Shown here in pieces: positions 30,837 to 32,088 of a DNA stretch of 64,000 nucleotides. Numbering within the stretch: position 1 is the stretch's first letter; every line of letters begins with the position of its first letter. The notes under the pieces are model-generated. The model was not told where the DNA came from, did no database searches, and saw only the letters and a program-made list of their open reading frames with translations. The translations under genes and the position numbers were made by a program. The DNA is from Microscillaceae bacterium. Lineage in GTDB: Bacteria > Bacteroidota > Bacteroidia > Cytophagales > Microscillaceae. The stretch covers positions 1 to 64,000 of the forward strand of contig JANWZA010000041.1 in NCBI GenBank assembly GCA_025054775.1. Reading direction: 5' to 3'.

Positions 30837-31463
30837 ATGAAGCATGTATTAAAATATCTCTCTTGTATACGTGTGAGTTGCTTAGTAATAATATGGTCTT
30901 TTTTAGAAGCTTGTTCGCCATCATGCGCTCCCCCAGAGATGTTTTTTGAAGTATTTTTCCAAATCAATCCGAATGTTCGCACTTATAACATAGGTGATAC
31001 GCTCTGGCTACAAACGCAGTTCTCTTCTTTCATGAAAGATGAAAAAGGCGGAGCAGTAGTAGACTTTAGCAATGCAGAGAACTTCGGAGTAGATGTAGGG
31101 TTTTTACTGCTCAACCCTGAGACGAAAACACGCCCTAGTGCCGATAGTTTTACTTTTGTAGAGAAAATTGGCTCAATTACTATTAAATCTGAAAGTTCTA
31201 AACCTACGCTTCGCAGAGCTTATTTCGCCGAGAATAATCGGTTATATGAATTAAAGATAGGAATAATTACCAAAGAAAAAGGAATTTTTACCATAGGTCT
31301 TAACTACTCACCTAATGTGAAGCGAAAAAATGCAGGTAAGTGCGATGCCTATGCACGTGTTAATTACAAATATCAAGTAGCTAATCTTCATTTTGACCTC
31401 TACCAGCAATTCAATCCACAAGCTCTCAATAGCCAAAACTTTTATAGTTTTATTGTAGAATAA
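30837..31463 (+). CDS. Lipoprotein of unknown function upstream of the RiPP precursor
   Basis: A 208-residue predicted lipoprotein: signal peptide with lipobox LEAC (C26), mature start CSPSCAPPEMF. The mature part is beta-rich, with segments VRTYNIGDTLWLQTQF, ENFGVDVGFLLLNP and SKPTLRRAYFAENNRLYELKIGI, similar in style to immunoglobulin-like folds of surface proteins, but no family is recognised. ATG 30837 was chosen; a TTG 14 codons earlier starts inside non-signal sequence. It ends 82 bp before the putative RiPP precursor gene and may be transcribed with it, so a link (immunity or surface display) is possible but unsupported. Confidence 0.7.
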   Translation: MKHVLKYLSCIRVSCLVIIWSFLEACSPSCAPPEMFFEVFFQINPNVRTYNIGDTLWLQTQFSSFMKDEKGGAVVDFSNAENFGVDVGFLLLNPETKTRPSADSFTFVEKIGSITIKSESSKPTLRRAYFAENNRLYELKIGIITKEKGIFTIGLNYSPNVKRKNAGKCDAYARVNYKYQVANLHFDLYQQFNPQALNSQNFYSFIVE

Positions 31464-31545: not shown

Positions 31546-32088
31546 ATGAAACAGCAGGTACTTCTTGAAAAAGTAGCCGCACTCGCTCAGCTTTCTAGTG
31601 ATGTGCAGTTTAGGAATGAGTTCATGGCTAACCCTAAAACCGTACTGCAAAATCTATTTCCTGAACTGAAGCTACCCGAAGATACACGTATTATCTTGCA
31701 TGAAAATACCTCTGACGAGATGCACGTCATTTTACTACCTTCGGAAGAGGCAGTATTTAATGCTTCGCTTGATGACAAGGTAGAGCAAGTATTAGATAAA
31801 GCCATTTTAGACCAAGCCTTTAAGAAACTACTTTTGGCAGACCCCAAAGGTGTTTTACAGCGCGAACTTCCAGATTTCTTCGTACCTGATAATTTCAAAA
31901 TATATTTCCATGAAAATACAGATAAAGAAATCCATTTACTTATCCCTAATTTAGCTCCACAAGGTGATGAGCTTTCGGAAGAAGAATTAGGTGTCGTAGC
32001 AGGTGGAGCGGGAAGAGGACCTCACATAGGAAGACCACGCGGTGGCAAGCCCCCAAAATGCCGTTCACAACATTTTAGAAGAGGGTAA
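31546..32088 (+). CDS. Putative RiPP precursor with tandem NHLP-type leader and basic core peptide
   Basis: The 180-residue product has two copies of the nitrile-hydratase-like leader peptide (NHLP) pattern. Copy 1 (22-65) reads FRNEFMANPKTVLQN to ILHENTSDEMHVILLP, copy 2 (92-134) FKKLLLADPKGVLQREL to YFHENTDKEIHLLIP. They are followed by ELSEEELGVVAGG (142-154), the double-glycine end of NHLP leaders. The 26 residues after it (155-180) contain six Arg, two Lys, two His, four Pro and one Cys (C172), with net charge about +8. In NHLP systems such leaders guide modification and C39-peptidase export of the core. No modification enzyme, radical SAM, cyclodehydratase or C39 transporter is visible nearby. 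Leader call is firm in pattern, product class inferred. Confidence 0.75.
   Translation: MKQQVLLEKVAALAQLSSDVQFRNEFMANPKTVLQNLFPELKLPEDTRIILHENTSDEMHVILLPSEEAVFNASLDDKVEQVLDKAILDQAFKKLLLADPKGVLQRELPDFFVPDNFKIYFHENTDKEIHLLIPNLAPQGDELSEEELGVVAGGAGRGPHIGRPRGGKPPKCRSQHFRRG

What the first reader, a model, noticed from the sequence alone, without database searches (positions are those of the whole stretch)
31546..32088. Putative RiPP precursor with two tandem NHLP leaders and a basic Gly/Pro core
The sequence shows a repeated leader pattern (residues 22-65 and 92-134), a double-glycine site VVAGG (150-154) and a 26-residue core with net charge about +8, four Pro, one Cys. NHLP-type leaders normally occur singly and are bound by modification enzymes. 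A duplicated leader is unusual, and no modification enzyme or C39 exporter is in view, so the maturation system must be elsewhere or the core is little modified. The lipoprotein at 30837 is the only neighbour on the same transcript candidate. This is the best candidate for an undescribed system here.
Basis: partly seen in the sequence, partly recalled or inferred. Interest (0 to 1): 0.8.

Follow-up and report, generated by a model that had tools for sequence, protein, structure and literature searches.

The report
Doubled-leader exported peptide, conserved core
This gene encodes a small, positively charged peptide that is probably cut off and secreted from behind an unusual doubled export leader; unlike its known relatives the peptide itself hardly changes between genera, which suggests a fixed job rather than an ever-changing weapon.

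Summary
ORF 31546-32088 (+), 180 aa, has two NHLP-type leader units, one double-glycine site (VVAGG, 150-154) and a 26-residue, +8 core. TIGR03793 (leader_NHLP) matches at 81.8 bits with two stretches. Orthologues occur once each in 9 of 15 genomes of its bacterial family (records labelled Microscillaceae/Cytophagales) and in none outside it among 375 other genomes of the order and a class-wide sample. All keep both leaders, the GG site and the core GRGPHIGRxRGGxxPxCRSQxF. The core is the most conserved part, the reverse of known NHLP precursors. The exporter is not missing: this genome encodes all three NHLM export parts (C39 peptidase-ABC, second ABC, HlyD adaptor), each on another contig. 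In two genera precursor and HlyD are adjacent, in one of them followed by the C39 ABC. LanC-type and YcaO enzymes are absent from this 99%-complete genome and from most carriers. Best reading: a leader-guided, C39-cleaved, exported cationic peptide, unmodified or modified by an unidentified enzyme, under purifying selection. It is a new variant of the NHLP/proteusin kind; a Microscilla marina relative was listed in 2010 without comment on a doubled leader or conserved core. What the peptide does is unproven.

The parts
31546..32088 (+). precursor gene: tandem NHLP leader + GG + cationic core (180 aa)
   Evidence: TIGR03793 81.8 bits, two stretches; nine orthologues
31546..31761 (+). leader unit 1 (residues 1-72), NHLP / nitrile-hydratase-alpha-like, helices then beta-hairpin
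   Evidence: TIGR03793 residues 13-69; model helices 3-37, strands 48-53 and 58-63
31762..31992 (+). leader unit 2 with the processing-site helix (residues 73-149, ELSEEELG...)
   Evidence: TIGR03793 residues 79-154 together with the GG site; model helices 77-107, strands 118-133, helix 145-151
31993..32007 (+). double-glycine processing site VVAGG (residues 150-154)
   Evidence: G153 and G154 invariant in nine orthologues; end of the TIGR03793 match
32008..32085 (+). core peptide AGRGPHIGRPRGGKPPKCRSQHFRRG (residues 155-180), net +8, one Cys
   Evidence: mean pairwise identity 0.76, highest of the long segments; unstructured in the model, pLDDT about 40

Best explanation
A NHLP-family (proteusin-like) secreted-peptide precursor with a duplicated leader. 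The folded acidic tandem leader holds the basic, disordered core in the cytoplasm and presents it to the dispersed NHLM export system. The C39 domain of NHLM ABC1 cuts after Gly154 and the 26-residue cationic peptide leaves through ABC1/ABC2 and the HlyD adaptor. The core is either unmodified (its lone Cys perhaps pairing into a disulfide outside the cell) or modified by an enzyme not yet identified. The core is fixed and the gene single-copy, so the peptide more likely acts on a fixed target (self-signalling, or an envelope or matrix component) than as a diversifying bacteriocin. Shown: precursor anatomy, conservation, presence and co-occurrence of the export system, adjacency in two genera. 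Inferred: cleavage, export, lack of modification, function.
For: TIGR03793 with two stretches. Nine single-copy orthologues, 51-65% identical, GG and core kept. They are the only NHLPs in the 15 family genomes. NHLM ABC1 at 1052 bits in this genome (cut-off 853), HlyD 373 bits, ABC2 877 bits. Precursor-HlyD-ABC1 in line in G006/G007 and precursor-HlyD in G014. Profile: all 9 precursor genomes have the NHLM-type C39 exporter; the 5 genomes without any NHLM-type exporter have no precursor; one (G013, 90% complete) has the exporter alone (Fisher 10/5005 = 0.002 by hand, ignoring kinship). No YcaO or LanC in this genome. Core under purifying selection: G008/G009 10 synonymous and 5 nonsynonymous codon differences, G006/G007 5 and 0. 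Leader acidity tracks core basicity: leader -13 to -17 with core +8 to +10; leader -24 with core +18 in g7. C39 catalytic Cys, His and Asp can be read in this genome's ABC1 (sequence).
Against: No experiment shows cleavage or export. In this genome none of the export genes is linked to the precursor, and one genome has the exporter without the precursor. SPASM proteins occur in carriers and non-carriers alike, so a radical-SAM modifier cannot be excluded. The four gene trees agree only partly (Mantel r 0.05 to 0.60), so strict co-inheritance is not shown. Core conservation could also reflect constraints from an unidentified enzyme.
Confidence: 0.7

Rival explanations
1. An extensively modified RiPP: an unlinked enzyme (for example a radical SAM/SPASM protein or an oxidative enzyme on Cys) is guided by the leader, and the conserved core reflects that enzyme's needs and the final structure.
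For: NHLP leaders in studied proteusins bind modification enzymes (PMC12455567). An invariant Cys, His and several invariant Arg/Gly/Pro in the core. SPASM proteins exist in most carriers. One leader copy could serve an enzyme and the other the exporter.
Against: No enzyme gene lies beside the precursor in any of nine genomes (judged by eye from ORFs). YcaO only in g7 and LanC only in g7 (plus one sub-threshold match); SPASM distribution does not follow the precursor and is nil in carrier G014, 86% complete. Core has few Ser/Thr (0-3).
Confidence: 0.33
2. TOMM (thiazole/oxazole) precursor, as Haft et al. 2010 suggested for Microscilla marina from co-occurrence of a cyclodehydratase elsewhere in that genome.
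For: A YcaO/SagD-type protein exists in both g7 genomes; Haft et al. made the link (PMC2887384).
Against: YcaO is absent from the seven other carriers, including this 99%-complete genome. In g7 it sits in its own locus next to rSAM_ocin_1 and a KamA-like protein, without NHLP. The core has one Cys and in g7 no Ser/Thr at all.
Confidence: 0.04
3. A classical bacteriocin / antimicrobial cationic peptide with an immunity function elsewhere.
For: Cationic, Gly/Pro/Arg-rich core, C39 export route, NHLM models are named for bacteriocin export.
Against: Core conserved across seven genera and under purifying selection, single copy, not on plasmids in the collection searched, no linked immunity gene recognised.
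Confidence: 0.2
4. An intracellular protein: a nitrile-hydratase-alpha-like two-lobed fold with a basic tail for nucleic-acid or protein binding, never exported.
For: Two lobes match both lobes of nitrile hydratase alpha and the model superposes over most of that chain, Z 5.7, rmsd 5.0 over 125 residues on 1v29. Very basic tail in g7.
Against: Invariant GG preceded by ELSE-EL--V, adjacency to NHLM HlyD/C39 ABC in two genera, co-occurrence with the exporter. The metal-binding region of nitrile hydratase is absent.
Confidence: 0.07

Closest known systems
NHLP / proteusin precursors (TIGR03793; Haft, Basu & Mitchell 2010, PMC2887384; MprE7 leader, PDB 8tb1)
   Same: NHLP fold and sequence, GG site, short C-terminal core, NHLM export system in the same genome
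   Different: two leader units instead of one; one gene per genome instead of families; core conserved instead of hypervariable; no linked or co-occurring YcaO/LanM; export genes dispersed
Microscilla marina ATCC 23134 NHLP 123988058 with Trans-Fuse 123988059 and Trans-Cleave 123988060 (PMC2887384)
   Same: gene order given there equals that of G006/G007 here: precursor, HlyD, C39 ABC, with ABC2 elsewhere.
   Different: the passages read list it as an ordinary NHLP and link it to a distant cyclodehydratase; they do not mention a doubled leader or conserved core
NHLP-Burk (TIGR03795) fused pairs of Acidovorax avenae / Delftia acidovorans (PMC2887384)
   Same: two NHLP-related units in one polypeptide
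   Different: those are two precursors fused, near a cyclodehydratase and without the NHLM exporter; TIGR03795 scores only 24.9 bits here, cut-off 41
Nitrile hydratase alpha subunit (TIGR01323/PF02979)
   Same: both lobes of the enzyme resemble the leader unit; tandem spacing (70 residues) is close to that between the enzyme's lobes (about 65)
   Different: no CxxCSC metal site, scores far below cut-off (25.3 against 249.85 bits), ends in GG and a secretable core

Membership tests
NHLP leader family (TIGR03793) | match to the leader model above the curated cut-off | tested here: met
   81.8 bits against 50.9; copy 2 alone 53.9
NHLP leader family (TIGR03793) | Gly-Gly cleavage motif at the end of the leader | tested here: met
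   G153-G154 invariant in nine orthologues
NHLP leader family (TIGR03793) | NHLM export system (TIGR03794/03796/03797) in the genome | tested here: met
   all three over cut-off in this genome
NHLP leader family (TIGR03793) | hypervariable core rich in Cys/Ser/Thr after GG (a typical, not a strictly required, feature) | tested here: not met
   core mean pairwise identity 0.76, leaders 0.48 and 0.61; one Cys, 0-3 Ser/Thr
NHLP leader family (TIGR03793) | single leader unit | tested here: not met
   two units in all nine orthologues
RiPP (post-translationally modified peptide) | core is enzymatically modified | not testable with these tools
   no YcaO or LanC in this genome; unknown enzymes cannot be excluded
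TOMM precursor | YcaO cyclodehydratase in the genome | tested here: not met
   no PF02624 match in this genome or in six other carriers
Lanthipeptide precursor | LanC-like cyclase (LanM/LanC) in the genome | tested here: not met
   no PF05147 match in this genome
Peptide-arginase-modified proteusin | UPF0489 peptide arginase in the genome | tested here: inconclusive
   no match, but the control genomes did not ring either
NHLP-Burk (TIGR03795) | match above cut-off | tested here: not met
   24.9 bits against 41

The most novel reading that the evidence does not exclude
A housekeeping-like secreted peptide system: a proteusin-type leader, doubled so that it rebuilds the two-lobed plan of nitrile hydratase alpha without its metal site, exports one fixed, unmodified cationic peptide (an autoinducer or an envelope/matrix component) through NHLM parts scattered over the chromosome; the first NHLP system with an invariant core and no tailoring enzyme.
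Probability: 0.35. Interest if true: 0.72.

Novelty: new variant of a known kind. Interest (0 to 1): 0.52.

Why it matters
NHLP/proteusin leaders are studied as docking modules for enzymes that act on hypervariable cores. Here the exporter is kept, the leader is doubled and the core is the most conserved part, with neither of the two classical enzyme classes present. If true, the leader serves export (and perhaps charge shielding) rather than chemistry, in line with the 2010 proposal that handling by the transporter is what conserves NHLP leaders. A genus-spanning fixed peptide is a ready candidate for a signalling or surface peptide in Cytophagales, and can be synthesised and tested directly. 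It also argues against calling the M. marina NHLP a TOMM precursor.

Tried and rejected
Lipoprotein at 30837 as partner: no homologue in any locus fetched around the orthologues. Linked modification enzymes: none recognised by eye in the neighbourhoods of nine orthologues or of the dispersed export genes. YcaO and LanC: absent from this genome; in g7 the YcaO belongs to another locus. SPASM radical SAM: uninformative distribution. UPF0489 arginase: no match but the control was silent too. Orthologues beyond the family: only single-leader NHLPs with unrelated hydrophobic or Pro-rich cores in the order and class samples. Plasmids: no match. Structure comparison gave only nitrile-hydratase-type chains at middling Z (best 5.8, rmsd 5.6 over 113 residues) plus the NHLP NMR structure 8tb1 (Z 3.5, rmsd 3.5 over 66).

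Full report
OBSERVATION. The ORF at 31546-32088 (+) encodes 180 residues. NCBIfam TIGR03793 (leader_NHLP) matches with 81.8 bits (cut-off 50.9) in two stretches; the halves tested apart score 32.6 bits (copy 1) and 53.9 bits (copy 2 with GG). The copies align without gaps over residues 19-63 and 89-133, score 97 against shuffles of 24.6 +/- 4.8, none of 2000 as high. The core after VVAGG is AGRGPHIGRPRGGKPPKCRSQHFRRG, net +8. So the description is accurate.

RELATIVES. In the 15 genomes of the same family the gene is present once in nine, from seven genera, 51-65% identical over the full length. It is the only NHLP gene in each of them: a TIGR03793 search of the family returns just these nine genes, two matches in each. 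Three of the matching public records are titled Microscillaceae or Cytophagales bacterium, the fourth Bacteroidetes bacterium. A search of 390 genomes of the order and of 395 drawn from the class found no other tandem member; the weak hits read were ordinary single-leader NHLPs in multigene arrays with unrelated cores. Plasmid records gave nothing.

CONSERVATION. Mean pairwise identity is 0.48 in leader unit 1, 0.61 in unit 2, 0.73 at the processing site and 0.76 in the core. The core pattern is G-[RK]-G-P-H-[IV]-G-R-x-R-G-G-x-x-P-x-C-R-x-x-F with small variations (R replaces the first G in g7). In the two within-genus pairs the core differs mostly by synonymous changes (10 against 5, and 5 against 0). 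Haft et al. 2010 describe NHLP cores as hypervariable (PMC2887384), so this is a clear departure. In g7 the core has gained a run of arginines (net +18) and the leader is correspondingly more acidic (-24, against -13 to -17 elsewhere); the g7 pair counts as one event, but the balance suggests the leader neutralises the core (inference).

DUPLICATION. In a small domain tree the first copies and second copies separate from each other and from single-leader NHLPs, so the duplication predates these genera. The alignment of the family profile to nitrile hydratase alpha (1v29) hits two places, 69-121 and 141-201. Those two segments are themselves alike (score 54, shuffle maximum 48 in 5000), about 65 residues apart. 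That is close to the 63-residue deletion by which Haft et al. derived NHLP from the enzyme (PMC2887384). A plausible reading is that the enzyme is two-lobed, that NHLP kept one lobe's worth, and that this family has two again, without the metal site. The predicted model (pLDDT 72, pTM 0.64, nine sequences) shows two helix-hairpin units and a disordered tail from 140 on. Its alignments to nitrile hydratase alpha chains span both units, but at middling Z (5.7 on 1v29, rmsd 5.0 over 125 residues). This remains a suggestion; one full-text search for such an internal repeat in nitrile hydratase found nothing relevant.

EXPORT MACHINERY. This genome has exactly one C39 peptidase match. It is NHLM_micro_ABC1, 1052 bits against a cut-off of 853, on contig C53 between unrelated genes. 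NHLM HlyD is alone on C65 (373 bits) and NHLM ABC2 alone on C12 (877 bits); their neighbours are ordinary cellular genes. The pattern is the same in most carriers. In G006/G007 the order is precursor, HlyD, C39 ABC, and in G014 precursor, HlyD. Every precursor genome has the NHLM-type C39 exporter (TIGR03796 was scored for four genomes; the others are 56-66% identical to this genome's). The five genomes without it (G001-G003, G010, G011) have no precursor. G013 has all three export genes but no precursor, at 90% completeness. G008 lacks HlyD and ABC2, at 82% completeness. Trees of the four genes agree only in part.

MODIFICATION. YcaO is absent from all carriers except g7. There it lies in its own locus beside rSAM_ocin_1 and a KamA-like protein, which weakens the published inference that the M. 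marina NHLP is a TOMM substrate. LanC-like proteins are confined to g7 apart from one sub-threshold, frame-broken match. SPASM proteins are found with and without the precursor. The arginase search was silent everywhere, controls included. So the two classical routes are excluded in this genome, others are open.

MECHANISM AND VERDICT. Most likely the acidic folded tandem leader carries the basic core to NHLM ABC1, whose C39 domain cuts after Gly154, and the peptide is exported. Anatomy, conservation, presence and co-occurrence of the exporter are shown; cutting, export and state of the peptide are inferred. The fixed core argues for a constant target. Compared with what is known it belongs to the NHLP family by sequence, GG site and exporter, but departs in leader number and core conservation: a new variant of a known kind. 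The M. marina relative was already catalogued (PMC2887384).

Noticed in passing
L125:2811-3845, L124:8976-9971, L014:2926-3954: NHLM HlyD adaptors of G012, G013 and G014 lack about 118 model positions (roughly 116-233, presumably the long helical hairpin) that the other carriers have; the export route past the periplasm may differ.
   Followed up: no
L154:5048-11464 and L155 (G006/G007): A separate RiPP-like locus: rSAM_ocin_1 C-methyltransferase, an unassigned 278-aa protein, a SagD/cyclodehydratase fusion and a KamA-like radical SAM protein; the 278-aa protein may be its substrate.
   Followed up: partly
G010:C146 and G011:C78 (L050 for G010): C39 peptidase transporter next to a SPASM-domain protein, apparently another peptide export system in genomes that lack the tandem precursor.
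   Followed up: no
L061-L073 (families f11 and f5 of the order): Arrays of ordinary single-leader NHLP genes with very different hydrophobic or Pro-rich cores, a good contrast set for the fixed core studied here.
   Followed up: partly
nitrile hydratase alpha, 1v29_A residues 69-121 and 141-201: The two stretches matched by the tandem-leader profile resemble each other, hinting at an internal repeat in the enzyme with about the length of the deletion that separates it from NHLP.
   Followed up: partly
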